Assembly: GCA_028287345.1 (NCBI GenBank)
Contig: JAQBPV010000306.1
Coordinates: 1 to 32,138, forward strand
Direction: 5' to 3'
Length of the DNA stretch: 32,138 bases
DNA from: Gemmatimonadota bacterium
Lineage (GTDB): Bacteria; Gemmatimonadota; Gemmatimonadetes; Gemmatimonadales; Gemmatimonadaceae
The notes under the pieces are model-generated. The model was not told where the DNA came from. It made no database searches and saw only the letters and a program-made list of their open reading frames with translations. This document shows, piece after piece, positions 8,351-32,138 of the stretch (positions within the stretch are counted from its first letter, which is position 1; the number at the start of each line of letters is the position of its first letter). The position numbers and the translations under genes are program-made.

Positions 8351-8373
8351 GGTGGCGGACAGGCATTTTCTCG

Positions 8374-11458: not shown

Positions 11459-11734
11459 CTACGCGTCGAGGTCGATGGCCCGCAGCGCCGTCAGCAGCGG
11501 AGTGAGATCTTCCGCGGCCAGCTCCGGATGATGCATCTCGTCGCTCTCGATGTGGTGGAGATAGCGCGAGACTTGCACCGAGGAAGCGCCACGCGCGAGC
11601 AGCCCATACACCGAATGGGCGTGGGCGAGATATTCTTCGTGCGTGCCCGGCGTGTCGCGCACTCGGAGTGGATCCCAATGCTCGAGCAGCACCTCGGCGA
11701 TCCTGCGTTCCGCGTTTCGTGTGGGCAGCGGCAT
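11459..11734 (-). CDS. 91-aa conserved-looking protein of unknown function
   Basis: A 91-aa soluble protein, mainly helical. The N-terminal half contains AERRIAEVLLEHWDPLRV and EEYLAHAHSVYGLL, and the second half YLHHIESDEMHHPE. The HWDP-then-EEY pattern resembles small uncharacterised proteins of the DUF1871-like type, but I cannot name a function. An AGGAGG stretch ends 4 nt before the chosen ATG, which is a good ribosome-binding site and supports 11734 over the longer open frame that continues upstream without protein-like sequence. It is divergent from the desaturase gene and upstream of yaeQ. Confidence 0.65.
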   Translation of the reverse strand: MPLPTRNAERRIAEVLLEHWDPLRVRDTPGTHEEYLAHAHSVYGLLARGASSVQVSRYLHHIESDEMHHPELAAEDLTPLLTALRAIDLDA

Positions 11735-11845
11735 CCATCCTCCTGGGCGTGCGAGGAGAACAGAGGGTGACGAGAGCATGAAGTCAAGAGCGCTGGCCCC
11801 CCGGGTGGCTGGACCCTGCGTGCGAAACCTGTCAGATTGGTAGCG

Positions 11846-12811: not shown

Positions 12812-12817
12812 GCCGAC

Positions 12818-12848
12818 CGGCCTCGCGCGCGTATCGCGCGTGAGGCCG
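12818..12848 (+). terminator. Hairpin after the desaturase gene
   Basis: A 13-bp GC-rich stem (CGGCCTCGCGCGC pairing with CGCGTGAGGCCG and flanks, one G-U pair) closes a 5-nt loop 6 nt after the desaturase stop codon. There is no T-tract, so termination strength is uncertain. It separates the desaturase from the tricorn-like protease. Confidence 0.6.
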
Positions 12849-12930
12849 AGCCTGTGTTCCACGGGCGCCGCTCCCCAGCGGCGCTCTTGCGCGTCCGTTC
12901 CGCGCGTTCCAGTTTGTGGCATCCAAATTC

Positions 12931-12940
12931 GGTATACCAC
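12931..12940. promoter_or_regulatory. Degenerate GntR-type operator upstream of the tricorn-like protease
   Basis: GGTATACCAC lies 38 bp before the protease ATG. Ten of the 12 positions of the perfect GTGGTATACCAC palindrome at 18822 match; the left outer bases differ. Unlike the other two sites, no good -10 hexamer stands 17 bp after it. Recognition by the neighbouring GntR protein is inferred. Confidence 0.45.
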
Positions 12941-12978
12941 ACTGGTTCACCGGCGTCCGCGCCCAAGCCCTCTCGTCG

Positions 12979-15900
12979 ATGCTCAGACGCGCACTCGTGC
13001 TGTCGATCGTCCTCGCTGCTTCCGTCGGCGCGCAAGGAACGCGCATGCTCCGCCATCCGACGATCAACGGCAACACGATCGTGTTCGCCTACGCCGGCGA
13101 CCTGTGGGCGACGAGCCGGGCGGGAGGAGCAACGCGCCGCATCACATCCACGCCCGACGTCGAAGGCGATCCACAGCTATCCCCCGATGGCACGATGATC
13201 GTGTTCAGTCGCACCGCCGGGGGCAATGCGGACGTGTACGTCGTACCAACGGCGGGAGGTGAGCCTCGGCGACTCACGTATCATCCGGGGCTGGACAAGG
13301 CGCGGGGCTGGACGCGCGACGGCAAGCGCGTCGTGTTCGCATCGGATCGCACCAGCGTGCCACAGGTTTCGTATCTGCGACTGTGGACCGTGGGCGTCGA
13401 TGGGGGATTCGAGGATGCCCTGCCGATGCCGCGCGCATTCGCCGGCGAATACTCGCCCGACGGCCGACGCTTCGCGTACGAGGAAATCTCGACGGCGTTC
13501 ATTCCCGATTGGTACGAGACCAGCCTGTGGCAGCGCTATCGCGGTGGACGCACGCAACCCGTTCGCATCATGGACATCGCGAACAATGCCGTCGAGAAGC
13601 TGCCGTGGCAGAACAGCAACGATCGCAACGCGATGTGGGTGGGCAACACCATCTACTTCCTGTCGGATCGCAACGGCGTGACGAACTTGTTCTCGTACGA
13701 TGTCGGCACGAAGGCGGTGAAGCAGCTCACGCGTCATGCCGACTTCGACGTCATGAACGCTTCGGCCGATGCGGACGCCATCGTCTATGAGCAGGCGGGC
13801 TATGTCCACCTGTTCGACCTGAAGACTGGTCAGACGAAGCGACTTGCGATCGATGTCGTCGGAGACTTTCCGTGGGCACGCCCGCAGTTCAAGCGTGTGG
13901 CGGCGATGATTCGTGACGCCGCGCTCTCGCCGACGGGCGTACGAGCAGCGTTTGAAGCGCGCGGTGAGATCTTCACCGTTCCCACAGAGAAGGGAGACGC
14001 TCGCAACCTCACGCAGACGTCGGGCGCCGATGAGCACAGTCCGTCATGGTCGCCGGACGGATCGCAGCTCGCGTGGCTGTCCGACTCAGACGCCGTGCAC
14101 CACCTCATGATCGGCGATCAAGCCGGACTGACGAAGCCGCGCGTCATCGCATTGCCGTCGGGCGGCGTTGCCTACTTCTCCGACCTCCAATGGTCGCCGG
14201 GCGGCAAGCAGCTGACGCTTCAGGACAATCATCTCGACCTCTGGCTGATCGACGTTGCGAGCGGACGCTCGTCGAAGATCGACTCCGACCTCTTCGCAAC
14301 ACCCGGACGTTCGTTCGACGCAACGTGGTCGCCCGACTCGAAGTGGATCGCGTACACGAAGAGCCTCGACACCCACCTGCGGGCCGTGTTCGTCTACGGT
14401 ATCGCCGATGGCAAGTCATTCCAGTTGACCGACGCGTTGGCCGACGCCGTGTCGCCGGCATTCGATGCAGGAGGAAAGTATCTGTACTTCCTCGCCAGCA
14501 CGGACATCGGCCCGCGCACCAGTTGGCTCGAGATGAGCCAGGTCGATCGGCCGCTGCGACGCGCGATCTATCTCGCCGTGTTGAGCGCGAGCGAGCCGTC
14601 GCCCCTGCTGCCCGAGTTGGGCGACGAGCCTGTCGGCGCCGCGGCGCCGAAGGCGCGACCGGATACGGTGGTACGCTTCGATGCCGCAGCGATCGGACAG
14701 CGAATTCTCAGTCTCCCAATCCCTGCGGGCGACTACAGCAGTCTCGTCGCCGGACCGAGTGGATCGTTCTTCTACGCCGAACCAATGGGCACGGGCCCGG
14801 CGGCGGGGCTGCGCGTGCAGCGCTTCCAACTGAAGGAACGCGCGGCAGCGATGTTTCTCGAAGGCGTGCGACTGTTCACCGTGTCGGCGGACAAGAAGAA
14901 ACTCCTCTACGCCGCGGCCGGCGGTGGTGCACCGCGATGGGGAACAGTCGGAACCGACAAGCCAGCGAAGGTCGGCGACGGCGTGCTGAACGTCGCGCAA
15001 CTGGAGGCGTGGGTCGATCCACACGTCGAGTGGGCCGCGATCTTCCGCCAGTCGTGGCGCAACCAGCGCGAGTACTTCTACGATCCCAAGATGCACGGCG
15101 CGGACTGGAATGCCGTGTGGGCGAAATACACGCCGTTCCTTCCCTACATCAACCATCGCGCCGACCTGGGCTACCTCGTCGCGCAGACGGGAGGCGAGCT
15201 CACCGTTGGTCACTCCTACCTGATCGGTCGGGGTGACGAGCCGGCCGATCAACCGGTGAGCGTCGGCCTACTCGGCGCCGACTATTCGATCGAGAATGGC
15301 CGCTATCGCATTCGCCGCATCTACACCGGTGAGAATTGGAATCCGGATCTGCGCGCCCCACTGAGCGCTCCTGGCATTCAGGTGGCGCAGGGTGACTACC
15401 TGCTCGAGGTGAATGGACGTCCGCTCGCCGCGCCGACGAACGTGTACTCATTGTTCGAGCAGACAGCGGGACGGCAGACCACGCTGCGCATCAATGCGAC
15501 GCCGTCGCTGGAAGGCTCACGTCTCGTCACGGTGATGCCGGTGGCCACCGAAGACGGTCTTCGCACGCGTGCATGGATCGAGGACAACCGGCGCAAAGTG
15601 GATGAACTGTCCGGGGGGCGACTGGCATACGTGTGGCTGCCCAACACTTCGACGCTCGGGTACACCGCCTTCACGCGCTACTTCTTCGCGCAGCAGAACA
15701 AGGAGGGCGCGATCATCGACGAGCGATACAATCACGGCGGCATGGTCGCCGACTACATCGTGAACGAGCTCGATCGAAAGCAGATGGGCTACTTCGCGAT
15801 GCGCGATGGCAGGGTGTGGTCGTCGCCGGCGGCGGGCATCTACGGTCCGAAGGTGATGCTCATCAACGAGTCCGCCGGCTCTGGCGGCGATGCCCTGCCC

Positions 15901-16224
15901 TACATGTTCCAGCAGCGCAAGATCGGTCCACTCGTGGGTACGCGGACCTGGGGCGGACTTGTCGGGACGACGGGAGTTCCGCCGACGATCGACGGCGGGG
16001 GCATCACCGCGCCGAGTCTCGCGTTCTTCAGCGACAAGGGTGAGTGGGGCATCGAGAACGTGGGCATTTCACCGGACATCGAGGTGGAATACACCGCAGC
16101 CGACGTCATCAAGGGTCACGATCCGCAGCTCGAGCGTGCGGTGAAGGAGGCGTTGCGTCTTCTCGATCAGTCGCCGCCGAAGCGGGTGGCGCGGCCGGCG
16201 CCGATCGATCGGATGCGGCCCTGA
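12979..16224 (+). CDS. Secreted tricorn-like S41 protease
   Basis: A 1081-aa exported peptidase with an N-terminal signal peptide (MLRRALVLSIVLAASVGAQG). Residues about 25-360 and 370-650 carry TolB/PD40-type beta-propeller repeats (SPDG, SWSPDGSQLAW, TWSPDSKWIAY). A helical C1 domain (about 690-740), a PDZ-like domain (about 755-850) and the S41 core follow. The catalytic residues line up with Thermoplasma tricorn (H746, S965, E1023): H745 in TVGHSY, S968 in NESAGSGGD, E1026 in GIENVG. Tricorn trims oligopeptides to small peptides; the signal peptide puts this one in the periplasm. The start at 12979 is chosen because it begins the signal peptide. A GntR-like operator copy lies just upstream. 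Confidence 0.92.
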   Translation: MLRRALVLSIVLAASVGAQGTRMLRHPTINGNTIVFAYAGDLWATSRAGGATRRITSTPDVEGDPQLSPDGTMIVFSRTAGGNADVYVVPTAGGEPRRLTYHPGLDKARGWTRDGKRVVFASDRTSVPQVSYLRLWTVGVDGGFEDALPMPRAFAGEYSPDGRRFAYEEISTAFIPDWYETSLWQRYRGGRTQPVRIMDIANNAVEKLPWQNSNDRNAMWVGNTIYFLSDRNGVTNLFSYDVGTKAVKQLTRHADFDVMNASADADAIVYEQAGYVHLFDLKTGQTKRLAIDVVGDFPWARPQFKRVAAMIRDAALSPTGVRAAFEARGEIFTVPTEKGDARNLTQTSGADEHSPSWSPDGSQLAWLSDSDAVHHLMIGDQAGLTKPRVIALPSGGVAYFSDLQWSPGGKQLTLQDNHLDLWLIDVASGRSSKIDSDLFATPGRSFDATWSPDSKWIAYTKSLDTHLRAVFVYGIADGKSFQLTDALADAVSPAFDAGGKYLYFLASTDIGPRTSWLEMSQVDRPLRRAIYLAVLSASEPSPLLPELGDEPVGAAAPKARPDTVVRFDAAAIGQRILSLPIPAGDYSSLVAGPSGSFFYAEPMGTGPAAGLRVQRFQLKERAAAMFLEGVRLFTVSADKKKLLYAAAGGGAPRWGTVGTDKPAKVGDGVLNVAQLEAWVDPHVEWAAIFRQSWRNQREYFYDPKMHGADWNAVWAKYTPFLPYINHRADLGYLVAQTGGELTVGHSYLIGRGDEPADQPVSVGLLGADYSIENGRYRIRRIYTGENWNPDLRAPLSAPGIQVAQGDYLLEVNGRPLAAPTNVYSLFEQTAGRQTTLRINATPSLEGSRLVTVMPVATEDGLRTRAWIEDNRRKVDELSGGRLAYVWLPNTSTLGYTAFTRYFFAQQNKEGAIIDERYNHGGMVADYIVNELDRKQMGYFAMRDGRVWSSPAAGIYGPKVMLINESAGSGGDALPYMFQQRKIGPLVGTRTWGGLVGTTGVPPTIDGGGITAPSLAFFSDKGEWGIENVGISPDIEVEYTAADVIKGHDPQLERAVKEALRLLDQSPPKRVARPAPIDRMRP

Positions 16225-16233
16225 GGAACGCGA

Positions 16234-16266
16234 GACGTGCTACCGCTTCCTTGCCGGTAGCACGTC
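16234..16266. terminator. Bidirectional hairpin between convergent genes, overlapping the gntR 3' end
   Basis: A perfect 12-bp inverted repeat (GACGTGCTACCG at 16234-16245 and CGGTAGCACGTC at 16255-16266) with a 9-nt loop. It lies between the protease stop and the gntR stop; the right arm and loop are inside the last gntR codons. It has no T-tract on either side. Confidence 0.6.
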
Positions 16267-17040
16267 CGGGGTCCAGTCCTGCCAGCTTCCTCGCTCGCCC
16301 TGCTTGGCGATGATGCGGGTAAGCCGCTCGGCCGCGTTGTGCCAGTTGGTCTCCGCGGCGCGCTGCGCCGCGTCGGCGTCGCCCCTGGCGATGCTCGCGG
16401 CGATCTTCTCGTGCTCCTTCACCGACGTCGCGACCTGGTCGAGCAGCACGCTCACGTAGAGGCGCGAGTAGCGATCGCTCTGCGGCTTGATCGCGCGATG
16501 GAGCGTGAGGAGTCGCGGACCGACGACGTCATCGACGTAGCGGTTGTGAAACGCGTGATCGAGCTCGAAGAACCGATCGGCATCGCCCGGCTTGTGCGCC
16601 TCGGCGGCGAGCTCCGCGTTGGCTTCGCGCAGGCTCTTCACGATCTCACGCCGGCGCGCGGCCGGCAGCAGCGCGGCGGTGCGTGCGGCGAGTCCCTCGA
16701 GATGTCCGACGATGAACATGACTTCGCGGCCATCGTCCATCGTGAGTGGCGCGACGATGAGCCGCCGCTCGCGCCCTCGGCCATTGGCGGCGACGAAGCC
16801 TTCCTGCTCCAAACGATGCAGCGCGCTGCGGACAGGCGTGCGGCTCAGGCCGAGGCGGTCGGCGATGAGGCGTTCGGAGATGCGGGAGCCAGGGGGTAAC
16901 TGCCCACTGACGATGACGAGCCGGAGCGCCTGATAGGCGCGTGTGACGTTATCCAGCTGTTCGTCGGCGTCCGAAGCGCCATTGTCGTCGGCGCGGCGTT
17001 TAACCGGTGTCTTGGCGGAGCGTGCTGCAGCTGATGCCAT
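16240..17040 (-). CDS. GntR-family regulator, FadR/VanR type with FCD domain
   Basis: A 266-aa transcription factor. Residues about 30-98 form the GntR winged helix (AYQALRLVIVSGQLPPGSRISERLIADRLGLSRTPVR region, with the wing after EGFVAANG). Residues about 105-235 form an all-helical FCD ligand domain. Its metal/effector-site residues are complete: D161 and H165 (D-x3-H), H210 and H234. Such regulators bind small carboxylates or amino acids and usually repress until ligand binds. It is divergent from the S12 hydrolase and convergent with the tricorn-like protease. A TGGTATACCA palindrome in its upstream region recurs before the nine-gene operon, so autoregulation and control of that operon are likely. 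The effector might be a D-amino acid or its N-acyl form. Confidence 0.9.
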   Translation of the reverse strand: MASAAARSAKTPVKRRADDNGASDADEQLDNVTRAYQALRLVIVSGQLPPGSRISERLIADRLGLSRTPVRSALHRLEQEGFVAANGRGRERRLIVAPLTMDDGREVMFIVGHLEGLAARTAALLPAARRREIVKSLREANAELAAEAHKPGDADRFFELDHAFHNRYVDDVVGPRLLTLHRAIKPQSDRYSRLYVSVLLDQVATSVKEHEKIAASIARGDADAAQRAAETNWHNAAERLTRIIAKQGERGSWQDWTPDVLPARKR

Positions 17041-17215
17041 GGTCGAGAAGGTTACCGGCGGTCAAATGCGCGCGCAACCTCGCGCAGTCGTCATTCTTGG
17101 AGGGGTCGGCGGTCAACAGGTCGCGCGGGTGCGCGCCAGCACGGGACGTGGCCAAGGTTGGCGATGCTGACGGGTGACGGAAGAAGAACCATCCTGACAT
17201 GCCTCATTGGTGACC

Positions 17216-17246
17216 CATTGTGGTATACCAAGGTCCGGGATACGTT
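17216..17246 (+). promoter_or_regulatory. Promoter and GntR-type operator of the S12 hydrolase gene
   Basis: The word CATTGTGGTATACCA (17216-17230) is identical to the one at 18818. It includes the palindrome TGGTATACCA (17221-17230). TTGTGG (17218) could be a -35 box, followed after 17 bp by TACGTT (17241) as -10. The operator thus overlaps the -35 and spacer, as expected for repression. It also lies 180 bp upstream of gntR on the other strand. Confidence 0.65.
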
Positions 17247-17282
17247 GGGCCGCACGCCGAGCCAGCCTTTCACCGGAACCCG

Positions 17283-18809
17283 ATGATGACGCGACGAGTG
17301 CTCACTTCATGCGCGGGAATGGCGGCGCTGGCGCTGTGGGGACTGCCTGCCCGCCTCGCCGCGCAGGAGCCCTATCCCGGGCTCGATGCCTACATCGCCA
17401 AGTCGCTGCAGGCGTCCAGGGTGCCCGGAGCCGCCGTGACGATCGTGCGCAACGACACGGTGATCTACCACAAGGGGTTCGGCGTGCTGGCCTTCGGCCG
17501 CAGTACGCCGGTGACTGAGGAGACGCTCTTCGAGATCGGGTCGAGCAGCAAGGCGTTCACGGCGACCGTCGTCGCCATGATGGTGTCCGACGGCAAGATG
17601 CGATACGACGATCTCGTCTCGAAGTATCTGCCGGACTTCAAGCTGTACGATCCGTCGGCGAGCGCGCAGGTCACGATCCGCGACGGCCTGGCGCACCGCA
17701 GTGGGATCGGCCGCGGTGAGCTCGTCTGGCTCGACGCGGGGCAGTCGCGCGCGGACGTGCTGCATCGCGTTCGCTTCCTCAAGCCGGAATCATCGTTCCG
17801 GTCGCGGTGGTCGTACCAGAACATGATGTACCTCGCCGTCGGCGAGGCGGCGGGCAAGGCGGGCGGCAGCACGTGGGATGACCTCGTGCAGACGCGCATC
17901 TTCACGCCGCTCGGTATGACGTCGAGCCGGCCGACATATCGCGGCATCACCACGACGAACCTCGCGACGGCGCACGCGATGAATCGCGATTCGATCGAGC
18001 GAAAGGGCCAGTTCGATGCGGAGAACATCGCACCGGCAGGGGCGATTCTCTCGAATGCGAACGACATGGCGCAGTGGCTGCGCTTTCAGCTCAACGATGG
18101 CGTCGTGAATGGAAAGCGCCTGGTGAGCAGCGCCGCACTGCGTGAAACGCACACGCCACAGATGCTCATCGGTGCTGGTGCCGGTCCTGGCGCAAGCGAC
18201 CAGACGCTGTTCAACACGTATGGCATGGGTTGGATCGTCCAGGACTATCGGCACGAGTTGGCGTGGCAGCACGGCGGAAATACACCCGGCATGACGACGG
18301 CCATGGGCATGCTACCGGAGAAGAAGCTCGGTGTGGTGGTGCTCACCAACATGGACCACACGCCGCTCGCGGATGCGCTGATGAAGTACGTCTTCGACCG
18401 CCATCTCGGCGCGCCGGTGCGCGACTATGCCGGTGAAGCCACTGCACGCGCCGCCGCGCAGCGCCGACCGGATACCGCGGCCGCACACAAGTCGGGCCCG
18501 CCGCCGTTGCCGCTTGCGGCATACGTCGGAACGTTCACGGACAGCCTCTACGGGGAGGCCACGGTCTCCCTGCAGAACGGACGCCTCGAGTTCACGCGCG
18601 GCCTCGCGCATGGGCCGCTCGAGTACTGGAACGCGAACAATTTCCGCTGGCTGAGCAACGCGTCGATCCCTGCGGTGACGTCGTACATCAAGTTCGATGT
18701 GGGGTCGGACGATAGGGTGACTGGCCTCTTCTTCGGATTGCCGCCGGACATTTCGCTGTTCACCCGCAAGCCGGCGAGTGGTAGAACTGGCGCCGGCGCC
18801 GAGCGCTGA
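17283..18809 (+). CDS. Secreted class C beta-lactamase-fold serine hydrolase (MEROPS S12)
   Basis: A 508-aa exported serine hydrolase. A signal peptide (MMTRRVLTSCAG to LAAQ) precedes the penicillin-recognising fold. The active-site triads are complete: S87-x2-K90 in IGSSSKAF, Y178-Q-N180 in WSYQN, and H330-G-G in WQHGG. A C-terminal beta domain (about 420-505, DUF3471-like) follows. S12 proteins include D-Ala-D-Ala carboxypeptidases, D-aminopeptidases and esterases as well as AmpC; the extra C-terminal domain and the neighbours argue for D-amino-acid peptide hydrolysis rather than antibiotic resistance. The first of two tandem ATGs is used; the start at 17220 is inside the operator and unlikely. 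It is divergent from gntR. Confidence 0.88.
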   Translation: MMTRRVLTSCAGMAALALWGLPARLAAQEPYPGLDAYIAKSLQASRVPGAAVTIVRNDTVIYHKGFGVLAFGRSTPVTEETLFEIGSSSKAFTATVVAMMVSDGKMRYDDLVSKYLPDFKLYDPSASAQVTIRDGLAHRSGIGRGELVWLDAGQSRADVLHRVRFLKPESSFRSRWSYQNMMYLAVGEAAGKAGGSTWDDLVQTRIFTPLGMTSSRPTYRGITTTNLATAHAMNRDSIERKGQFDAENIAPAGAILSNANDMAQWLRFQLNDGVVNGKRLVSSAALRETHTPQMLIGAGAGPGASDQTLFNTYGMGWIVQDYRHELAWQHGGNTPGMTTAMGMLPEKKLGVVVLTNMDHTPLADALMKYVFDRHLGAPVRDYAGEATARAAAQRRPDTAAAHKSGPPPLPLAAYVGTFTDSLYGEATVSLQNGRLEFTRGLAHGPLEYWNANNFRWLSNASIPAVTSYIKFDVGSDDRVTGLFFGLPPDISLFTRKPASGRTGAGAER

Positions 18810-18817
18810 CTGTACGC

Positions 18818-18848
18818 CATTGTGGTATACCACTTCGTCTCGTATGTT
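18818..18848 (+). promoter_or_regulatory. Promoter and perfect GntR-type operator of the nine-gene operon
   Basis: GTGGTATACCAC (18822-18833) is a perfect 12-bp palindrome. TTGTGG (18820-18825) and TATGTT (18843-18848) are separated by 17 bp and make a plausible sigma70-type promoter, with the operator covering the -35 and the start of the spacer. The GTG start of the first gene is 47 bp further on. The layout is the same as at 17216. Confidence 0.7.
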
Positions 18849-18895
18849 CGTGCCGCACTTTCGCCCTGACTCGTTCCACTCTCGACGCCCTTCGC

Positions 18896-19765
18896 GTGAA
18901 TCAGGATGCACCCCGTCGCGCCAGCGCGACTTCCGGCCCCACTCCCCTGCTCGACCTCGAGCCCGCGGACATCCGCATTCGACCGGTCACCACGCACTCG
19001 GAATTCCGCGCGTGCGTTGATTTTCAAGCGGAGATTTGGGGTCCGGCGTATACCGACAGCGTTCCCGCGTCCCTCCTGCAGGTTTCGACATATGTGGGTG
19101 GCGTCGTACTCGGCGCGTTCACCCCAGCCGATGAATTGGTGGGCTTTCTTTTCGGTCTCACCGGCATCGAGGACGGCGACGTCGTCCACTGGTCGCACCT
19201 CCTCGGCGTGCGCGATGCCACGCGCAACCTCGGCATCGGCCGGCTGCTCAAGGAAGCACAGCGCGCCGAGCTGGCGAAGCGAGGCGTGAAGCGGATGTCG
19301 TGGACATTCGATCCACTCGTCGCGAAGAACGCGTACCTGAACCTCAACCGCCTGGGCGCGCGCGTCGTCGAGTATGTGCCGAACATGTACGGCACCACGA
19401 CGAGTCCCTTGCACTATGGCATCGCGACGGACCGTCTCGTGGTGTCCGTCGACACGAACGCCGCGGCGCCTGCCCACGACTCGACTGAGCCGAGCCCAGC
19501 GCGGCAGTCGCTCATGACGCTCGAGGCGCGTGAGGGCGATGCCGTCCTCGACCCGTCGTCTCCTCCCTCTGCGCTGTGGATCGAAGTGCCGAGCGACATC
19601 CGCCAGGTGATCGAACAGTCGCCGAGTGCGGCTGCCAAGTGGCGGCTGTCAGTGCGTGAACATTTTCAATGGGCGTTGGCGCGCGGCTACGAGGTGAAGG
19701 CGCTGCAGCGTGATCCAGTGGCGTCTCGCTCGTTCTACCTGCTGCAGCGCAAGGTGGCGGCATGA
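18896..19765 (+). CDS. GNAT-family N-acyltransferase (COG3375-like), candidate D-amino acid N-succinyltransferase
   Basis: A 289-aa GNAT protein. The fold core spans about residues 25-190: the CoA pyrophosphate loop is R-N-L-G-I-G (motif A) after SHLLGVRD, and WTFDPLVAKNAYLNLNRLGA followed by YVPNMYG is the pattern of predicted acetyltransferases found beside MenC-like enzymes. The last 90 residues are an additional region ending in ALQRDPVASRSFYLL. In the Geobacillus pathway a GNAT enzyme next to N-succinylamino-acid racemase succinylates D-amino acids with succinyl-CoA, and the next two genes here are the matching racemase and hydrolase. The acyl donor is not shown by sequence. The GTG start gives a 20-residue tail before the fold; the stop overlaps the next ATG by 4 nt. 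Confidence 0.8.
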   Translation: MNQDAPRRASATSGPTPLLDLEPADIRIRPVTTHSEFRACVDFQAEIWGPAYTDSVPASLLQVSTYVGGVVLGAFTPADELVGFLFGLTGIEDGDVVHWSHLLGVRDATRNLGIGRLLKEAQRAELAKRGVKRMSWTFDPLVAKNAYLNLNRLGARVVEYVPNMYGTTTSPLHYGIATDRLVVSVDTNAAAPAHDSTEPSPARQSLMTLEAREGDAVLDPSSPPSALWIEVPSDIRQVIEQSPSAAAKWRLSVREHFQWALARGYEVKALQRDPVASRSFYLLQRKVAA

Positions 19766-23509: not shown

Positions 23510-23510
23510 G

Positions 23511-25262: not shown

Positions 25263-25281
25263 TCACTCACAGGAGCTCGCA

Positions 25282-28200
25282 ATGCGAACACGGTTTAGGC
25301 AGCATCTCATGAGCAGATCGCTGGTTGCCGTGGCGCTCGTGGCCGCGACGATCAGTGTGACGGCCGCACGTCCCGCGCACGCCTTGCAGCAGGGCACCGC
25401 AATCATCACCGGTATGGTCACCGACGCGCGAAGCAAGCAGCCGGTGGCCGGCGCCTCAGTGACGATCGTCGGAACGAGATTCGGCGCACAGACGTCCGCC
25501 GACGGTCGCTACCGCATCGGCGGAGTGCCGAGTGGAAGCCCGGTGGTCTCGGCGAGACGCATTGGCTACGCGACGCAGCGACACACCGCCAACGTCACTG
25601 GCGATCAGGTCGTGAACTTCGACCTCGAGCCGGCCGCCGCGGCACTCGACGAGGTCGTCGTCACCGGTACGGCGGGTGGCGAGCTTCGCCGCTCGATCGG
25701 CAACGCGGTGTCAACGATCAATGCCGACGACGCCATCTCCAAGTCGGCCGCGCAGAGCGTGAGCTCGCTCATCGGCGCGCGCGCACCCGGCGTGATCATC
25801 GCGTCGACCACCGGACGACTGGGCGCAGGACCGTCCATCCAGATTCGCGGACGCAACAGCATCGGTCTCGACAACTCGCCGCTGCTGTTCGTCGACGGAG
25901 TGCGCGTGAACAACGCCACGAGCGCTGGTCCCGTTGCGCCTCCGGGCAGACTGGGTGGTCAGGCGTCCAACGTCTCCGGACGGTTGAACGACATCAGCCC
26001 CGAGGACATCGAGAGCATCGAGATCATCAAGGGCCCCGCCGCCGCGACGATCTACGGCACCGAGGCAGCGAACGGCGTGATCCAGATCATCACGAAGAAG
26101 GGATCGGCGGGAAACAAGCCTTCGACGACCATCAACGTCGAAGAGGGTACGATTTTCCTGCGCGATGCGGCGGGCCGAGTGCCCACCAACTATGCGAAGA
26201 ATGCAAGCGGGGCGATCATCGCGTGGAACGGCATCCAGGCCGAAGCGGATAGCGGCAGGCCTGTCTACAAAACCGGCCAGACGCGCAAGTACAACGCGTC
26301 GCTCTCGGGTGGCCGAGAGGCGCTGACGTTCTACGCGTCGACGAGCTACGAGAATGATCTCGGTGTCGAGCCGAACAATTCACTTCGGCAGGGCACGTTC
26401 CGCGCAAACCTCAACGTGCAGCCGTCGCCGAACCTCGACTTCTCGTCGAGCCTCGGCTACGTCTCGCTGTCGAGCCACCTCGGTGCAGACGTCGGGGCGT
26501 CGCCGTTGCTTGGTGCCATCGTCGGACATCCCTTGGTCTTCCCGGGTGGGCGCGGGTTCTATCCGGGCTTCACGCCCGACATTCCGCAGACGCTGTACGA
26601 CAACGCACAGGGGGTTCGCCGTTTTGTGGGCAGCGCGACGATCACGCATCGTCCCACGACGTGGTTCACGCACCACGTGATCGTCGGTGTGGACGAAACC
26701 GGCGACGACAGCCGCGCGATCGAACACTTCACGTCCCTGCCGTCACAGGTGGCATTGATCGGCGCCGTTGCGGCGGGCGGATCGATCGGCCAGACACTGC
26801 GGCACAACACCATCGTGTCGTCGGAATACACGGCGAGCGCGAAGGTGAACGTCAGCCCGGGGCTGAGCTCCGCGACGTCCGTGGGTGGACAGTTCTATCG
26901 CACGGAGCTCAACGCGAGCTTCCTCGGCGGCACCGGCTTCCCCGGACTCGGCGTCGAGACGGTAAACTCGGCGTCTTCGCCTGCCACCTCGACGCAGACG
27001 CAGACGCTGAATACGACGATCGGCGCCTATGGACAGCAGCAGTTCGGATGGCGCGAGCGGCTCTATCTCACCGCCGGCCTACGCGTCGACAACAACTCGG
27101 CGTTCGGCGACAAGCTGAAGTGGGTGACCTATCCGAAAGTCAGCGCTTCGTGGGTACTGAGTGAAGAGCCGTTCTGGAAGCAGAACGGCATCCTGAACTC
27201 GATGCGGCTGCGCGGCGCGTATGGACAGTCGGGCCGTCAGCCGGCGGCATTCTCTGCGCTGCGCACGTTCAGCCCGGCGCAGGGTCCCGGTGGCACGAGC
27301 GCCGTGACCCCGAACTCGATCGGCAACACGAATCTCAAGCCGGAGCGCGGCAGCGAAGTCGAGCTCGGATTCGAGACGCAGGTGTTCGATCGGCTCGGTC
27401 TCGACTTCACGTACTTCAACAAGAAGACGACCGACGTGATCATCAATCAGCCCGTGGCGCCGTCGAGTGGGTTCTACGTGGCCACGCCGGCGAACCTGGG
27501 GCGAGTAGACAATAAGGGAATCGAGTTGCTCGCGACGCTGCAGGCCGTGTCGCGGAAAAACTTCGCGTGGGACATCGTCGGCAACGTCGGCACCAACAAG
27601 GACGTCATCAAGGATCTCGGTGGCATCGGCGGCGTGGTGCTGAGCGCCGGCCAGACGAACGTCGTCGGTGGCCCGATCGGCGGCATCTACACGAAGCGCG
27701 TGGTGTCGGCAGATCGCGATCCAACGACCAACCTCGCGACGAACGTCCTCTGCGACGGTGGTGAGGGCAAGCCTGCCGTGGCATGCGCCAGCGCACCGTT
27801 CGTCTTCATCGGCACGCCGACGCCGAAGGTCTCTGGCTCCGTCGCGAACACCTTCACGTTCCTCAGTCACTTCCGGCTATACGGCCTGGTGGACTTCAAG
27901 CGCGGCAATCGCGTGGCGAACAACAACGAGCAGTTGCGCTGTACGGGTGCCGTGGGCGCCCCGCTCTGCCGCGCGAACTACTACCCACTCGAGTTCGACC
28001 CCGTGTACCTCGCCGAGCGCGTTGGTACGGCAGCGGCACAGGGGATCACCGATCAGTACTACCAGGACGGATCCTTCACGAAGCTGCGCGAGGTGTCGTT
28101 GACGTACACGCTGCCGCCAGCGCTGCTGCGCGGATACAACTCGGCGTCGATCACCTTCGCCGGCCGTGATCTTCACACCTGGACGGATTACGCGGGACTC

Positions 28201-28308
28201 GATCCCGAAGTGAACCTGAACAACGTCGCAACGACCGCCGCCACGGGCGACCAGGCCGTGACGCCGCCGCTCAGCCGGTTCATCGTGTCCTTCACCCTCA
28301 AGTTCTGA
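25282..28308 (+). CDS. SusC/RagA-type TonB-dependent outer-membrane receptor
   Basis: A 1008-aa outer-membrane transporter. A Sec signal peptide ends near AHA (residue ~35). Residues about 42-120 form a carboxypeptidase-regulatory-like domain (GMVTDARSKQPVAGASVTI, GRYRIGGVPSG), the mark of the SusC class. A TonB-box-like LDEVVVTGTA precedes the plug (about 130-240, with IRGRNSI, FVDGVRVN, IEIIKGPAAATIYG, ANGVIQIITKKG). The rest is a 22-strand barrel ending in the terminal aromatic of FTLKF. An AGGAG 6 nt before the ATG supports the start, 20 bp after the deacylase stop. With the SusD partner downstream it would import large substrates, here probably peptides or N-acyl-peptides given the rest of the operon. 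Confidence 0.93.
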   Translation: MRTRFRQHLMSRSLVAVALVAATISVTAARPAHALQQGTAIITGMVTDARSKQPVAGASVTIVGTRFGAQTSADGRYRIGGVPSGSPVVSARRIGYATQRHTANVTGDQVVNFDLEPAAAALDEVVVTGTAGGELRRSIGNAVSTINADDAISKSAAQSVSSLIGARAPGVIIASTTGRLGAGPSIQIRGRNSIGLDNSPLLFVDGVRVNNATSAGPVAPPGRLGGQASNVSGRLNDISPEDIESIEIIKGPAAATIYGTEAANGVIQIITKKGSAGNKPSTTINVEEGTIFLRDAAGRVPTNYAKNASGAIIAWNGIQAEADSGRPVYKTGQTRKYNASLSGGREALTFYASTSYENDLGVEPNNSLRQGTFRANLNVQPSPNLDFSSSLGYVSLSSHLGADVGASPLLGAIVGHPLVFPGGRGFYPGFTPDIPQTLYDNAQGVRRFVGSATITHRPTTWFTHHVIVGVDETGDDSRAIEHFTSLPSQVALIGAVAAGGSIGQTLRHNTIVSSEYTASAKVNVSPGLSSATSVGGQFYRTELNASFLGGTGFPGLGVETVNSASSPATSTQTQTLNTTIGAYGQQQFGWRERLYLTAGLRVDNNSAFGDKLKWVTYPKVSASWVLSEEPFWKQNGILNSMRLRGAYGQSGRQPAAFSALRTFSPAQGPGGTSAVTPNSIGNTNLKPERGSEVELGFETQVFDRLGLDFTYFNKKTTDVIINQPVAPSSGFYVATPANLGRVDNKGIELLATLQAVSRKNFAWDIVGNVGTNKDVIKDLGGIGGVVLSAGQTNVVGGPIGGIYTKRVVSADRDPTTNLATNVLCDGGEGKPAVACASAPFVFIGTPTPKVSGSVANTFTFLSHFRLYGLVDFKRGNRVANNNEQLRCTGAVGAPLCRANYYPLEFDPVYLAERVGTAAAQGITDQYYQDGSFTKLREVSLTYTLPPALLRGYNSASITFAGRDLHTWTDYAGLDPEVNLNNVATTAATGDQAVTPPLSRFIVSFTLKF

Positions 28309-28310
28309 CC

Positions 28311-29639
28311 ATGCGACTCCTCACTCATCGTCGTCACCTGGGCGCAGCGCTCGCACTCAGCCTGATGGCCACCGCGTCGGTCATCGCATGCACGGACATC
28401 ACGAGCCTGGCGCAAGAGAATCCAGGAGCGCTTTCCGGCAGCACGCTGTACGTCCCCGGCAATGCGCAGTTGATCGTGAATGGAGCCATCGGAGACTTCG
28501 AGTGCGCCTATGCGCGCTACGTCATCGGCAGCGGGCTCTTTACCGACGAACTTTCTGTCGGCATCTCCAATACCGCCAACTTCGACTACGACGCGCGTCG
28601 GGTGCTGACGAACGCCACCTACGGCACCAATAACTGCGCCGCGACGCCGAGCACCACACAGCAGCCAGGCATCTACACGCCGCTGTCCACGTCGCGAGCA
28701 ACGGCGGATACCGCTGCCGCCTACCTCGAGGTGTGGACCGATGCCGATGTGCCGAACCGGACCAAGTTGATTGGCCAGAGTTACGCGTATGCCGGCTATA
28801 GCTTGATTCTGCTCGGCGAGAGCATGTGCTCGGCGGCCATCAACCTCGGGCCGGAGATCCAGCCTGCGGCGCTGTTTGCCGAAGCAAAGATCCGCTTCGA
28901 CAAGGCGATCGCCGCGGCGACGGCGGCCAACGACGCAACGACGCTCAATCTCGCGCGCGTCGGTCGGGCGCGAGCACTTCTCGACCTGGGTGAGACGGCG
29001 AACCTGGCCGCCGCGGCTGCCGACGCCGCGCTCGTTCCCGCGACGTTCGTCCTGAACACATCGCCCGACGCAATCAACGCTCGGCGCCAGAACACGCTCT
29101 TCATCAACATCTCGCAGAGCTCATTCTCGACGGTCGACACGTCGTTCCGGAACGTGCTCATTCCTGGCGGCACCACGCAGGATCCACGCGTCGCCGTCAC
29201 GGATCTCGCCCGCAACGGGACGGCGACTGGTTCGCGTCTCTTCCTGCCCGCCAAGGCATCGACCAATGCTTCGCCGATGCGCATCGCGAGCTATGCCGAA
29301 GCGCAGCTGATCATCGCCGAGAACGCTGCGGCGACGAGTGACTTTGCTGCGGCCGTAACGGCGATCAACAACGCTCGTTCGCGCACGACTGGCCTGCCCA
29401 CCTTCGCACTCCTGCCCGGCGCCACTGCGGCGACGGTCAAAGCACAGATCATCGAAGAGCGTCGTCGCGAATTCTTCGTCGAAGGACACCGCCTTGGCGA
29501 CATCCGGCGGTACGGCCTGCCATTCACGCCGGCGGCCGGCGCGACGTATCAGTACGGCGGCCTGTACGGAACACAGACGTGCTTCCCGCTGCCCGACGTC
29601 GAGCGCATCAACAATCCAACGATCGCCAAGGGCGCTTGA
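28311..29639 (+). CDS. SusD/RagB-like outer-membrane lipoprotein
   Basis: A 442-aa substrate-capture lipoprotein that works as the lid of the SusC channel. The leader ends ASVIAC, so C27 would be lipidated. The body is helical with TPR-like repeats: residues about 140-215 (AYAGYSLILLGESMCSAAI), and a C-terminal segment around 385-405, EERRREFFVEGHRLGDIRRYG, which is the best-conserved SusD feature. It is shorter than many Bacteroidota SusD proteins (500-600 aa), as is common in Gemmatimonadota-like genomes. ATG lies 2 nt after the susC stop. The ligand cannot be read from sequence. Confidence 0.88.
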   Translation: MRLLTHRRHLGAALALSLMATASVIACTDITSLAQENPGALSGSTLYVPGNAQLIVNGAIGDFECAYARYVIGSGLFTDELSVGISNTANFDYDARRVLTNATYGTNNCAATPSTTQQPGIYTPLSTSRATADTAAAYLEVWTDADVPNRTKLIGQSYAYAGYSLILLGESMCSAAINLGPEIQPAALFAEAKIRFDKAIAAATAANDATTLNLARVGRARALLDLGETANLAAAAADAALVPATFVLNTSPDAINARRQNTLFINISQSSFSTVDTSFRNVLIPGGTTQDPRVAVTDLARNGTATGSRLFLPAKASTNASPMRIASYAEAQLIIAENAAATSDFAAAVTAINNARSRTTGLPTFALLPGATAATVKAQIIEERRREFFVEGHRLGDIRRYGLPFTPAAGATYQYGGLYGTQTCFPLPDVERINNPTIAKGA

Positions 29640-29644
29640 TCCAC

Positions 29645-30784
29645 ATGTCCGCCGTCTGCACATGGCGTCGTGCTCTCTTCGGCGCAATCGCCTACGGCGC
29701 CTGTGCCGGAGGGATTGCGTCGGCTCAGGCGATCTTGCCGCCGTCGCTGGAGCTGCGCGTTCCGAAAGCGCCGACACTCGGCACCGCAGAAAGTGGCTCG
29801 TTCCTGACGTACGAGTTGCACGTCACGAACTTCAGCGGGCAGCCGATGACGCTGAAGAGCGTCGACGTGCTGTCAGGTGACGCCACCCTCTTCACATTGG
29901 CCGACAGTGCGCTGACGCAAAGCATCGCTCGGCCAGGACAGACCGTTCCGGCGTCGGATCGCGCGAAGATCGCCGGAGGCACGCGCGCCGTGGTCTATCT
30001 CTGGGTGCCGGTCGATGCACGATCGGCCCCAGCGTCCATCCGGAATCGCGTGAAGGTCGAGCAAGGAACCGGCGACAGCACGCGCACGCAAGAACTCGAG
30101 GGTGCTGTCGTGTCCGTGTTGCGCATGGGCAGCGACATCGGGCCACCACTTCGCGGTGGAACATGGCTGGCTGGGAACGGGCCATCGGCGCGGTCGGGGC
30201 ATCGGCGTGCGCTGATACCGATTGGCGGCGCGCCCTCGATCGCACAGCGCTTCGCCATCGACTGGGTGCGCGTGAACGACACCGACAGTACGTACTCGGG
30301 AGATCGTCTCAAGAACGAGAACTACATCGCCGAAGGGAATGACGCGCTCGCTGTGGCGAACGGACGTGTCGTGGCGGTGAAGGATGGTCTTCCCGAGAAT
30401 GTGCCAGGCGTGAGCTCGCGTGCCGTGCCCATCACGCTCGAAACGGTCGGCGGGAATCACGTCATCATCGACATCGGCGGCGGCCGATATGCGTTCTACG
30501 CGCACCTCAAGCCAGGCGCAATTCTCGTGAAGGTTGGCGATACGGTGAAGAAGGGCCAGGTGATCGGTCTCGTTGGCAACACGGGCAACTCGACGGAGCC
30601 GCATCTCCACTTCCACATCTCCGACGGCAATTCTCCACTCGGCAGTGAAGGTGTGCCGTATGGTTTGGATTCGTTCGAGATCGTTGGTCGCTGCCGCACG
30701 TTCAACATCGGCTGCACGCGCGAGACGCCCAAGACGCGGCGCGGCGAGATCCCCCTCGAGAGCGTGTTGGTTCGCTTTCCATGA
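29645..30784 (+). CDS. Secreted M23-family peptidase
   Basis: A 379-aa exported protein. After a signal peptide ending at IASAQA, a beta-rich region (about 30-160) resembles an immunoglobulin-like domain, followed by an LytM/M23 domain (about 195-335). The Asp ligand D206 is in QRFAIDW, H287 in FYAHLKPG, and H320-x-H322 in PHLHFH. The His normally four residues before the Asp is R202, as in a subgroup of M23 proteins, so the metal site is not textbook and activity is unproven. M23 enzymes cut peptidoglycan cross-links or stem peptides, a source of D-amino-acid peptides. Starts 5 nt after the susD stop and overlaps the next gene by ATGA. Confidence 0.85.
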   Translation: MSAVCTWRRALFGAIAYGACAGGIASAQAILPPSLELRVPKAPTLGTAESGSFLTYELHVTNFSGQPMTLKSVDVLSGDATLFTLADSALTQSIARPGQTVPASDRAKIAGGTRAVVYLWVPVDARSAPASIRNRVKVEQGTGDSTRTQELEGAVVSVLRMGSDIGPPLRGGTWLAGNGPSARSGHRRALIPIGGAPSIAQRFAIDWVRVNDTDSTYSGDRLKNENYIAEGNDALAVANGRVVAVKDGLPENVPGVSSRAVPITLETVGGNHVIIDIGGGRYAFYAHLKPGAILVKVGDTVKKGQVIGLVGNTGNSTEPHLHFHISDGNSPLGSEGVPYGLDSFEIVGRCRTFNIGCTRETPKTRRGEIPLESVLVRFP

Positions 30785-32138
30785 GATCATGGCGCGTCGT
30801 CGGTCTCGCAGCTCTACTGGCCACCGCGCCGGCGCTGGTTGCTGCGCAAAGCGCGGGATATGACGTCGTCATCCGTAACGGTCGCGTGCTTGACGGATCT
30901 GGGAATCCGTGGATTCTCGCCGACGTCGCTATCAAGAACGGACGCTTCGCAAAGATCGGCGTCGTCCGCGAACAGGGACGCGTCGAGCTGGACGCCCGTG
31001 GCAAATATGTGTCGCCGGGGTGGATCGACGTGATGGACCAGTCGGGGAGCGTGCTCCGACGGAATCCACTCGCCGAGAACAAGCTGATGATGGGCGTGAC
31101 GACGGCGATTGGCGGTGAGGGTGGCACGCCTGTGCCGGCGAGCGAAGTCGCGAGCTACTTCAGGCAGCTCGAGCAGCAGGGCATCAGCATCAACTTCGGC
31201 AGCTACTTCAGCGAGACGCAGGCCCGCGTCGCCGTGCTGGGGATGTCGTCACGCGCGCCGACGAGCGCGGAGCTCGATCGCATGCGTGCAATCGTCGATA
31301 CGGCGATGCGCGGCGGCGCGATGGGAATGACTACGGCGCTGATCTACCCGCCGAGCAGCTATGCGACGACGAGCGAGTTGATCGAAGTCGGCAAGGCGGC
31401 GGCGCGCTATGGCGGCATCTACGCGAGCCACATTCGCGGTGAGGGTAAGGAAGTCGTGCAGTCGGTGGAAGAGGCGATCAGGATCGGCGAAGAGGCAGGC
31501 ATGCCTGTCGAGATCTTTCATCTCAAGGTCGCGTATCGTCCCGGCTGGGGTGTGCTGATGGATTCGCTGCGCCGCGTGATCGATGCGGCACGAGCGCGCA
31601 ATGTCGACGTTGCGGCTGACATGTATGTCTATACGGCTGGCGGAACGGGACTCGAGGCGACGATTCCCAGCTGGGCCTTCGACGGCGGCAGGGATTCCCT
31701 GCTCGCTCGGCTCGCGAATCCCACGATTCGCACGCGGCTCAAGGCCGAACAGAAGACAGGCGTGCCGGGATGGTGGAACATCGTCGAGGCGGCCGGCGGG
31801 TGGGACGGCGTCGTGCTGGCAAACGCGCGCAATCCGCAGAACGACCGATTCAACGGCAAGTCGCTCGCGCAAATCGGCAAGGAGCTCGGCAGGGACCCCG
31901 CCGACGTCGCCTTCGATTTCGTGGCGCAGGGGAGCGGCCGAGTCATGGCCATCTACTATATGATGAGCGAAGGGGACATCGAGACGGCACTCCGCTTTCC
32001 ATGGATCAGCATCGGCAGCGACGCCGGCGCCGCCGCGAAGGCGGGCGGTGGCGACGACCTCGGCCTTCCGCACCCACGGTCGTATGGCAATGCGGTGCGG
32101 GTCATCGCCAAGTACGTGAAGGAGCGCAACGTCATCTC
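30781..32138 (+). CDS. Second N-acyl-D-amino acid deacylase-like amidohydrolase, 3'-truncated by window end
   Basis: At least 452 residues, open to the end of the window. A signal peptide (MRSWRVVGLAALLATAPALVAAQ) is followed by VIRNGRVLDGSGNPW and the amidohydrolase barrel. H217 (YASHIRGE) and H247 (EIFHLKVA) keep the 30-residue spacing of the family; D414 is in IGSDAG and the Cys bridging position is E113 (GGEGGTP). As in the first deacylase of the operon, the HxH motif is missing (M85-D-Q87 after GWID). The two proteins are diverged paralogs, so they may take different N-acyl-D-amino acids. The ATG overlaps the M23 stop by 4 nt (ATGA), which places it in the same operon. No lipobox is seen, so it is probably soluble in the periplasm. 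Confidence 0.87.
   Translation, partial: MRSWRVVGLAALLATAPALVAAQSAGYDVVIRNGRVLDGSGNPWILADVAIKNGRFAKIGVVREQGRVELDARGKYVSPGWIDVMDQSGSVLRRNPLAENKLMMGVTTAIGGEGGTPVPASEVASYFRQLEQQGISINFGSYFSETQARVAVLGMSSRAPTSAELDRMRAIVDTAMRGGAMGMTTALIYPPSSYATTSELIEVGKAAARYGGIYASHIRGEGKEVVQSVEEAIRIGEEAGMPVEIFHLKVAYRPGWGVLMDSLRRVIDAARARNVDVAADMYVYTAGGTGLEATIPSWAFDGGRDSLLARLANPTIRTRLKAEQKTGVPGWWNIVEAAGGWDGVVLANARNPQNDRFNGKSLAQIGKELGRDPADVAFDFVAQGSGRVMAIYYMMSEGDIETALRFPWISIGSDAGAAAKAGGGDDLGLPHPRSYGNAVRVIAKYVKERNVI

What the first reader, a model, noticed from the sequence alone, without database searches (positions are those of the whole stretch)
12931..32138. Candidate GntR-controlled system for salvage of D-amino-acid-containing peptides, from outer membrane to L-amino acid
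One operon (18896 to beyond the window end) links a SusC/SusD uptake pair, a secreted M23 peptidase, two secreted N-acyl-D-amino acid deacylases, an amino acid permease and a cytoplasmic acyltransferase/racemase/M20 set. A secreted S12 hydrolase and a tricorn-like protease stand next to the shared regulator. Each family is read from motifs. The proposal is that D-containing peptides (for example from peptidoglycan or lipopeptides) are captured, hydrolysed, deacylated, imported and turned into L-amino acids. I know of the three-enzyme core from Geobacillus, but not of this full uptake-to-conversion arrangement.
Basis: partly seen in the sequence, partly recalled or inferred. Interest (0 to 1): 0.85.

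Follow-up and report, generated by a model that had tools for sequence, protein, structure and literature searches.

The report
Regulon for peptides with D-amino acids
A soil Gemmatimonadota bacterium appears to switch on, through one GntR-family regulator, a full set of genes that capture and digest peptides outside the cell and turn the mirror-image (D) amino acids they release into ordinary L-amino acids, but the actual food molecule is still unknown.

Summary
In a related genome it continues with two more hydrolases, S12 and S15. The cytoplasmic core is a GNAT, an NSAR-family racemase and an M20 hydrolase, homologous to the core in Bacillota. It is not a menaquinone gene set: no MenB was found, and the futalosine pathway is present.

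New here is a DNA site that ties the system to the GntR gene. CCATTGTGGTATACC, or a close variant, stands before the tricorn protease, the S12 hydrolase and the operon. Its only other exact copy in the bin precedes another S12 hydrolase. In 12 genomes of other genera the related TTGTATACAAT has 8 sites, each before a gene of these families.

Two readings need correction. Both "N-acyl-D-amino acid deacylases" lack the HxH motif and the cysteine ligand of known D-aminoacylases and carry glutamate instead. The M23 protein lacks its first zinc histidine. Substrate and effector remain inferred. New variant of a known kind.

The parts
12931..12945 (-). operator-like site CCAGTGTGGTATACC before the tricorn gene (1 mismatch)
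   Evidence: two-mismatch site before tricorn in G001 and G004
12979..16224 (+). secreted tricorn core protease (PD40, C1, PDZ, S41)
   Evidence: Pfam; start codon inferred from the signal peptide
16240..17040 (-). GntR-family regulator, FCD (FadR-type) subfamily; likely regulator of the set
   Evidence: orthologs; tracks the operator
17215..17229 (+). operator-like site CCATTGTGGTATACC between GntR and S12
17283..18809 (+). secreted S12 serine hydrolase with DUF3471; SxxK, YxN and HGG intact
18817..18831 (+). operator-like site CCATTGTGGTATACC before the operon
18896..19765 (+). cytoplasmic GNAT, predicted amino-acid N-succinyl (N-acyl) transferase
19762..20934 (+). predicted N-succinylamino acid racemase of the NSAR/OSBS subfamily
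   Evidence: not MenC in this genome
20931..22139 (+). cytoplasmic M20 amidohydrolase (YxeP-like), predicted N-succinyl-L-amino acid hydrolase
22136..23509 (+). APC amino acid permease
23511..25262 (+). D-aminoacylase-fold lipoprotein with Gln110/Glu137/His263/His293/Asp456 site (no HxH, no Cys)
25282..28308 (+). SusC-family TonB-dependent transporter
   Evidence: TIGR04056 over cut-off
28311..29639 (+). SusD-family surface lipoprotein
   Evidence: PF07980
29645..30784 (+). secreted M23-domain protein lacking the first zinc His
30781..32138 (+). second D-aminoacylase-like secreted protein (M-x-Q, Glu), cut by the contig end

Best explanation
This is a GntR-controlled peptide-utilisation regulon with a D-to-L amino acid conversion core. 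Proposed working: SusC/SusD bind and import peptides across the outer membrane. Secreted S12, S15 and tricorn hydrolases, with D-aminoacylase-like amidohydrolases, cut them, including at D-residues, to free or N-acylated D- and L-amino acids. The APC permease brings amino acids into the cytoplasm. There the GNAT N-succinylates the D-amino acid, the NSAR-family enzyme racemises it, and the M20 hydrolase removes succinate from the L-form, pulling D to L. The GntR/FCD protein binds CCATTGTGGTATACC-type sites and holds the set off until a small effector is present. Shown here by comparison: gene families, conservation together, the shared site, and that the racemase is not MenC in this genome. Inferred: DNA binding by this GntR protein, all enzyme activities and their order, D-specificity of the outer hydrolases, the substrate, and repression rather than activation.
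For: Racemase: TIGR01928 at 332 bits against a cut-off of 201; best PDB match is a Deinococcus-type N-acylamino acid racemase, E 2e-90 (organism recalled); KxK, Asp/Glu/Asp and the second Lys are invariant in 12 aligned. The GNAT is homologous to GNATs beside NSAR in Bacillota, where M20-GNAT-NSAR occur together in 7 of the 80 loci. Not menaquinone: MenB over cut-off in 3 of 60 genomes (own plus 59 relatives) and not in the own genome; MqnE matched in 51 of 60, own included; the three MenB genomes have none. Clustering: GNAT in 27 and M20 in 26 of 29 racemase loci; deacylase-like gene in 14, GntR in 13, APC in 10, S12 in 9, SusC in 7 of 29 (similarity limits in the full report). Operator: in 9 genomes of the genus CCATTGTGGTATACC at up to 1 mismatch has 9 matches, 8 at this locus and 1 before an unlinked S12 gene; reversed control 0. 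GTATAC core before 12 of 15 GNAT genes with a nearby GntR, 0 of 14 without (Fisher p 1e-5). In 12 genomes of other genera TTGTATACAAT has 8 distinct sites, all before GNAT, GntR, deacylase-like, SusC or S12 genes; reversed control 0. One unlinked site heads SusC-SusD-S9 peptidase.
Against: No substrate, effector or activity is known for any protein here. The deacylase-like proteins lack HxH and Cys, and mutating either HxH His abolished activity in the related enzyme PpOngB (PMC12017989, passages). M23 lacks a zinc ligand. The full set occurs only in close relatives: 14 of 29 racemase loci have neither GntR (45%) nor a deacylase-like gene (38%) in the stretch read; of the 48 more distant named loci 0 have GntR, 3 a deacylase-like gene, 1 SusC. 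69 of 89 deacylase-like genes in 27 genomes lie further than 20 kb from the racemase, and 13 of 20 contigs or regions around such genes carry no second gene of the set. At up to 2 mismatches in 5 genomes, 16 of 33 operator-like matches lie at genes of the set, 3 were not looked at, and the rest, mainly in G001 and G009, have no clear target; the reversed control gives 3 in G001 and 1 in G004. G012, G024 and G038 have GntR at the core but no exact TTGTATACAAT; their sites are variants. SusC and S12 genes may be numerous in these genomes (not counted), so a site before one is weaker evidence than a site before GNAT.
Confidence: 0.7

Rival explanations
1. General peptide scavenging: the regulon serves ordinary L-peptides (or any peptide), and the D-to-L core merely cleans up the D-residues that come with microbial necromass.
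For: Tricorn, S15, S9 and SusC/SusD are not known as stereospecific families (families; lack of stereospecificity recalled). The APC permease's best NCBIfam score is to an L-type amino acid transporter model, far below its cut-off. The core exists without the peptide genes in many relatives.
Against: In the genomes of other genera, 4 of the 8 distinct sites lie before the GNAT gene, alone or divergent to another gene, so conversion of D-amino acids looks like a central output of the regulon. The solved S12 structures matched include D-peptidases such as ClbP, Pab87 and alkaline D-peptidase (names and specificities partly recalled), but also many class C beta-lactamases.
Confidence: 0.45
2. Degradation of nonribosomal (lipo)peptides or other antibiotics: secreted S12, S15 and amidohydrolases cut antibiotics and the cell eats the pieces.
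For: D-stereospecific peptidases destroy nonribosomal peptide antibiotics (Li 2018, seen only as a citation in PMC12516957; that these belong to S12 is recalled). S15 includes alpha-amino-acid ester hydrolases and cephalosporin acylases (recalled). NSAR enzymes prefer hydrophobic residues (recalled), which are common in such peptides.
Against: No resistance or efflux gene was recognised among the genes identified; no substrate evidence. SusC/SusD suggests feeding rather than defence.
Confidence: 0.25
3. Peptidoglycan or muropeptide salvage.
For: M23 domain protein and D-residues in peptidoglycan; an S13 D-Ala-D-Ala carboxypeptidase gene lies near the operon in G004 on the other strand.
Against: The M23 protein lacks a zinc ligand. 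No amidase, glycosidase or Mur/Amp recycling gene was recognised in the operon. D-Ala and D-Glu have their own racemases (recalled).
Confidence: 0.2
4. The racemase is really the menaquinone enzyme OSBS (MenC).
For: Best NCBIfam name is o-succinylbenzoate synthase. In relative G002 the homolog lies about 2.5 kb from MenB.
Against: Own genome has no MenB match at E 1e-60 and has MqnE over cut-off with a second match beside it; linked to GNAT and M20.
Confidence: 0.03

Closest known systems
D-to-L amino acid pathway of Geobacillus kaustophilus (GNAT, NSAR/OSBS, desuccinylase; recalled)
   Same: Same three families side by side; homologous GNAT and NSAR in Bacillota loci. GkNSAR/OSBS kinetics are listed in PMC8142540 (passages).
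   Different: Here joined by operon and regulator to SusC/SusD, secreted hydrolases and a permease.
D-aminoacylases AfDam (1m7j), BbDam (3gip), Klebsiella D-acylase (9g5m), and the GlcNAc1A deacetylase PpOngB
   Same: Same fold (TMt 0.88-0.90); His/His ligands and catalytic Asp kept.
   Different: HxH absent and Cys replaced by Glu; extracytoplasmic signal sequences by eye.
E. coli NagA (Q-x-N, Glu/His/His, one metal)
   Same: Loss of HxH together with a Glu/His/His site; PMC6016474 passages state a QXN motif and a mononuclear site in the E. coli enzyme.
   Different: Different subfamily; similarity is by analogy of ligands.
SusC/SusD utilisation loci, incl. peptide importer RagAB (recalled)
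   Same: SusC/SusD pair inside an operon of degradative enzymes with its own regulator.
   Different: Peptide and D-amino acid enzymes instead of glycan enzymes; GntR instead of SusR, HTCS or ECF regulators (recalled).
S12 D-stereospecific peptidases (ClbP, alkaline D-peptidase, Pab87, resistance peptidases)
   Same: Family and catalytic motifs.
   Different: Specificity untested; ClbP and Pab87 rank among the better matches, but the best is IS11 and many matches are beta-lactamases.

Membership tests
NSAR/OSBS subfamily (enolase superfamily) | subfamily model over cut-off | tested here: met
   TIGR01928 332 bits, cut-off 200.65
NSAR/OSBS subfamily (enolase superfamily) | KxK, Asp-Glu-Asp metal ligands, second catalytic Lys | tested here: met
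   K173/K175, D201, E226, D251, K275 invariant in 12 of 12 aligned
NSAR/OSBS subfamily (enolase superfamily) | NSAR rather than OSBS role: no MenB pathway, linked to acyltransferase and hydrolase | tested here: met
   bin is 92% complete
NSAR/OSBS subfamily (enolase superfamily) | racemises N-succinyl amino acids | not testable with these tools
   needs enzyme assay
GNAT acyltransferase | GNAT fold and CoA-binding motif R/Q-x-x-G-x-G (motif recalled) | tested here: met
   RNLGIG in the window, R110 nearly invariant and G115 invariant; fold E 3e-9 to GNATs; 18 of 24 alignment members match Acetyltransf_7 at E 0.01
[quoted passage not shown]
[quoted passage not shown]
[quoted passage not shown]
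   Glu/His/His instead; definition from PMC12017989 passages
[quoted passage not shown]
   D456, 28 of 28
SusC/SusD | SusC model over cut-off followed by SusD | tested here: met
   TIGR04056 463 bits, cut-off 368; PF07980 42 bits, cut-off 23
GntR, FCD (FadR-type) | GntR winged helix plus FCD domain | tested here: met
GntR, FCD (FadR-type) | binds the GTATAC-centred site | not testable with these tools
   comparative footprint only
M23 peptidase | H-x(3)-D and HxH zinc motifs (recalled) | tested here: not met
   first His absent in 4 of 4, HLHFH kept
S12 serine hydrolase | SxxK, YxN, HxG (recalled) | tested here: met
   window protein
Tricorn core protease | propeller repeats, C1, PDZ and S41 domains | tested here: met

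The most novel reading that the evidence does not exclude
A surface-to-cytoplasm 'D-peptide utilisation regulon' of Gemmatimonadota. One GntR/FCD regulator, through GTATAC-centred sites spread over the genome, runs SusC/SusD uptake, stereospecific S12 and S15 hydrolases, a new metal-site class of D-aminoacylase-fold amidohydrolases (no HxH, Glu/His/His/Asp) and the succinylation-racemisation core. Its dedicated food would be D-rich peptides of other microbes, such as nonribosomal (lipo)peptides.
Probability: 0.35. Interest if true: 0.75.

Novelty: new variant of a known kind. Interest (0 to 1): 0.62.

Why it matters
How soil bacteria recycle D-amino acids and D-residue peptides is poorly known (my judgement), and Gemmatimonadota are abundant in soil with few cultured species (abstract beginnings listed). 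The finding gives a candidate regulator, an exact DNA site, a list of likely regulon genes in several genera, and a secreted enzyme group with an unusual metal site. All of these can be tested by cloning single genes into laboratory E. coli.

Tried and rejected
MenC reading of the racemase: rejected for this genome. Reading the shared site as a general promoter element: rejected, because it is rare genome-wide, sits mostly at genes of the set, and is not found before those genes where GntR is absent. Reading the deacylase-like proteins as dead enzymes: not favoured. Glu, two His and Asp are kept in 26 of 26 HxH-less rows of alignment A2, and loss of HxH goes with Glu: 34 sequences without HxH all have Glu, 8 with HxH have none (22 core-linked plus 20 others). 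I chose those 20 from about 150 places. Sequence search of the single GNAT against the PDB gave nothing useful. PMC13081902 (bile salt hydrolases) was read in passages and is not close. Papers on the Geobacillus pathway itself were not among the titles listed, so it is recalled. A search for the second-shell Arg of NSAR enzymes found no useful paper. A first synteny table lost genes through an overlap filter and was replaced. The pattern used to read the second Lys failed for some rows, so conservation is cited.

A search for papers with at least three of GntR, N-acylamino acid racemase, SusD, D-peptide, peptide utilization locus, D-aminopeptidase found none. Among the 15 titles listed of 3,906 and the 15 listed of 902 I saw none that describes this arrangement. 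[quoted passage not shown] No wider claim about print is made.
Full report
WHAT IS THERE. The window is a whole 32138-base contig of a 6.08 Mb, 543-contig bacterial bin that is 92% complete with 5.6% contamination. From 18896 to the end nine genes run on the + strand with overlaps or gaps of at most 19 bases: GNAT, NSAR, M20, APC permease, D-aminoacylase-like lipoprotein (Dac1), SusC, SusD, M23-domain protein, second D-aminoacylase-like protein (Dac2). Upstream are a secreted S12 hydrolase, a GntR/FCD regulator on the other strand and a secreted tricorn core protease. Signal and lipoprotein sequences were read by eye.

HOW THE OPERON GOES ON. The first 1645 bases of contig C352 of the same bin match the last 1654 bases of the window at 88.5% identity, and C352 continues with S12+DUF3471 and then S15/PepX. 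It may come from a related strain or a second copy. In relative G004, a genome of about 10 contigs, the operon is uninterrupted: GNAT-NSAR-M20-APC-Dac1-SusC-SusD-M23-Dac2-S12-S15.

THE CYTOPLASMIC CORE. The racemase scores 332 bits to TIGR01928 (cut-off 201) and is closest in the PDB to N-acylamino acid racemases (the source organisms Deinococcus and Amycolatopsis are recalled). In 12 aligned sequences K173, K175, D201, E226, D251 and K275 are invariant. The GNAT has only weak Pfam scores alone, but a 24-sequence alignment with Bacillota and Chloroflexi neighbours of NSAR has 20 invariant positions. 18 of 24 members match a GNAT Pfam at E 0.01, and the AlphaFold model (pLDDT 87) matches GNAT acyltransferases (E 3e-9). 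M20-GNAT-NSAR occur together in the Bacillota loci L176, L184, L188, L190, L199, L200 and L203. The chemistry (succinylation, racemisation, L-specific desuccinylation) is from recall of that pathway, not tested.

NOT MENAQUINONE. The 60 genomes searched are the own genome and 59 relatives. MenB is over its cut-off in 3 of 60 (G002, G008, G050) and has no match in the own genome. MqnE of the futalosine pathway is matched in 51 of 60 (over the cut-off in 41), the own genome among them and over the cut-off. The three MenB genomes have none, and 6 further genomes have neither. In G002 the racemase homolog lies about 2.5 kb from MenB with no GNAT on that 8 kb contig, so there it is probably a true MenC.

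CONSERVATION. I read stretches of up to about 20 kb on each side, shorter at contig ends, of 30 racemase genes in 29 loci of relatives (56% identity or more), plus 3 loci of the 40% class as controls. GNAT is present in 27 of 29 loci and M20 in 26 of 29. Counted at the following tblastn identities: deacylase-like (38% or more) in 14, GntR (45%) in 13, APC (53%) in 10, S12 (36%) in 9, SusC (43%) in 7, M23 (57%) in 3, tricorn (50%) in 5 of 29, two of these cut by the end of the stretch. The three control loci carry none. Order and strand differ between genera, so this is not only shared descent of one arrangement. In 27 genomes with a core (own genome and G002 left out), 20 of 89 deacylase-like genes lie within 20 kb of the racemase, 0.91 expected. 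Outside the genus it is 14 against 0.74 expected, in 9 of 22 genomes (counts taken by me). The other 69 of 89 are further away. Of 20 contigs or regions around other deacylase-like genes, 13 carry no second gene of the set; one (G055) has GntR and APC beside it, and one is the C352 operon end. Among the 48 more distant named loci 29 have GNAT, 9 M20, 5 APC, 3 deacylase-like, 3 S12, 1 SusC and none GntR. One of them, the Acidobacteria-type locus L178, has S12, APC, NSAR and an HxH-less deacylase-like gene together.

THE SHARED SITE. CATTGTGGTATACCA occurs exactly before S12 and before the operon, and with two mismatches before tricorn. At up to 3 mismatches the window has 5 matches, 0.11 expected; one of them is the other strand of the operon site and one lies inside the S12 gene. 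In 9 genomes of the genus CCATTGTGGTATACC at up to 1 mismatch has 9 matches: 8 at this locus (own genome 3, G001 2, G003, G004, G009) and 1 on contig C71 of the own genome. The other 4 genomes have none; the reversed control has 0. The C71 copy lies 80 bases before an S12 gene (signal sequence by eye) followed by an alpha/beta hydrolase. At up to 2 mismatches in 5 genomes there are 33 matches. 16 of them lie before genes of the set: besides those above, tricorn (G001, G004), Dac1 (G001), unlinked S12 genes (G001, both strands of one site; G004) and a SusC-like gene (G003). Three G001 matches had no locus of their own; one of these is the second strand of the S12 site, already counted, and the other two were not looked at. 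The rest, mainly in G001 and G009, have no clear target. The reversed control gives 3 in G001, 1 in G004 and 0 in the other three.

In relatives with a GntR ortholog near the core, GTATAC lies within 250 bases upstream of 12 of 15 GNAT genes. In loci without it the count is 0 of 14. Chance is 0.01 to 0.02 per stretch, Fisher p 1e-5; a site between divergent genes is counted for both. At least one such site is present in 13 of 13 loci with GntR and in 0 of 16 without; GTATAC also occurs elsewhere in these stretches, 41 and 28 times in all (the latter including the 3 control loci). In 12 genomes of other genera TTGTATACAAT has 9 matches at 8 distinct places in 5 genomes. All 8 precede GNAT, GntR, deacylase-like, SusC or S12 genes, 3 of them far from the core. 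Reversed control 0. Seven genomes have none: G010, G027, G031 and G050, without GntR at the core, but also G012, G024 and G038, which have GntR and variant sites. One unlinked site heads SusC-SusD-S9 peptidase with S12 next to it. GTATAC is also found in the window at 9666 and 19048, where no promoter is known. That the GntR protein binds the site is inferred.

THE DEACYLASE-LIKE PROTEINS. By sequence and fold they belong to the D-aminoacylase group. Known members use Cys/His/His plus HxH and Asp, and mutation of either HxH His abolished PpOngB activity (PMC12017989, passages). All 22 core-linked proteins, including both in the window, lack HxH and carry Glu at or next to the Cys position, with both His and Asp kept; 5 of the 22 keep the second His (Q-x-H or M-x-H). 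Of 20 unlinked homologs sampled, 12 are of the same kind and 8 have HxH without Glu. In the 28-row alignment Glu is present in 26, the other two being HxH types. E. coli NagA likewise has QXN and one metal (PMC6016474, passages). I read this as an active one-metal variant whose substrate need not be an N-acyl-D-amino acid.

OTHER WEAK POINTS. The M23 protein and its 3 relatives lack the first zinc His. The window's S12 keeps its motifs; the solved structures it matches include ClbP, Pab87 and alkaline D-peptidase but also class C beta-lactamases, so D-specificity is open. The APC permease has no substrate call.

VERDICT. The enzyme names for the deacylases and M23 need correction, and the substrate is unknown.

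Noticed in passing
G008 and G050: Both have MenB and no MqnE, and their only NSAR/OSBS homolog at E 1e-40 is the core-linked one, so that enzyme may serve both menaquinone synthesis and D-amino acid conversion (other MenC types were not searched).
   Followed up: no
L090 (G002:C252): An NSAR-like gene 56% identical to the window's lies near MenB without GNAT or M20, probably a MenC; MenB and MqnE never occur together in the 60 genomes.
   Followed up: partly
L114 (G000:C352:1-1645): Contig end matches the window's end at 88.5%, so the bin holds a second related strain or a second copy of the operon end.
   Followed up: partly
window 7957-9537: A second M23 protein with a PcsB-type coiled coil (EnvC-like), outside the operon.
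   Followed up: no
window 11459-12940 (-): 493-aa frame with no Pfam match, divergent from the tricorn gene and overlapping its operator-like site; it may not be a real gene.
   Followed up: no
L228 (G003:C179:20352) and L225 (G003:C7:6887): Two-mismatch operator-like sites near a SusC-like gene and before a gene with an anti-sigma RskA domain.
   Followed up: partly
L055 (G023:C2:533000-552900): Two racemase-GNAT pairs with different neighbourhoods about 15 kb apart in one genome.
   Followed up: partly
L133 (G055:C158): A deacylase-like gene, a GntR ortholog and an APC permease in a row on a short contig of a genome without a racemase match.
   Followed up: no
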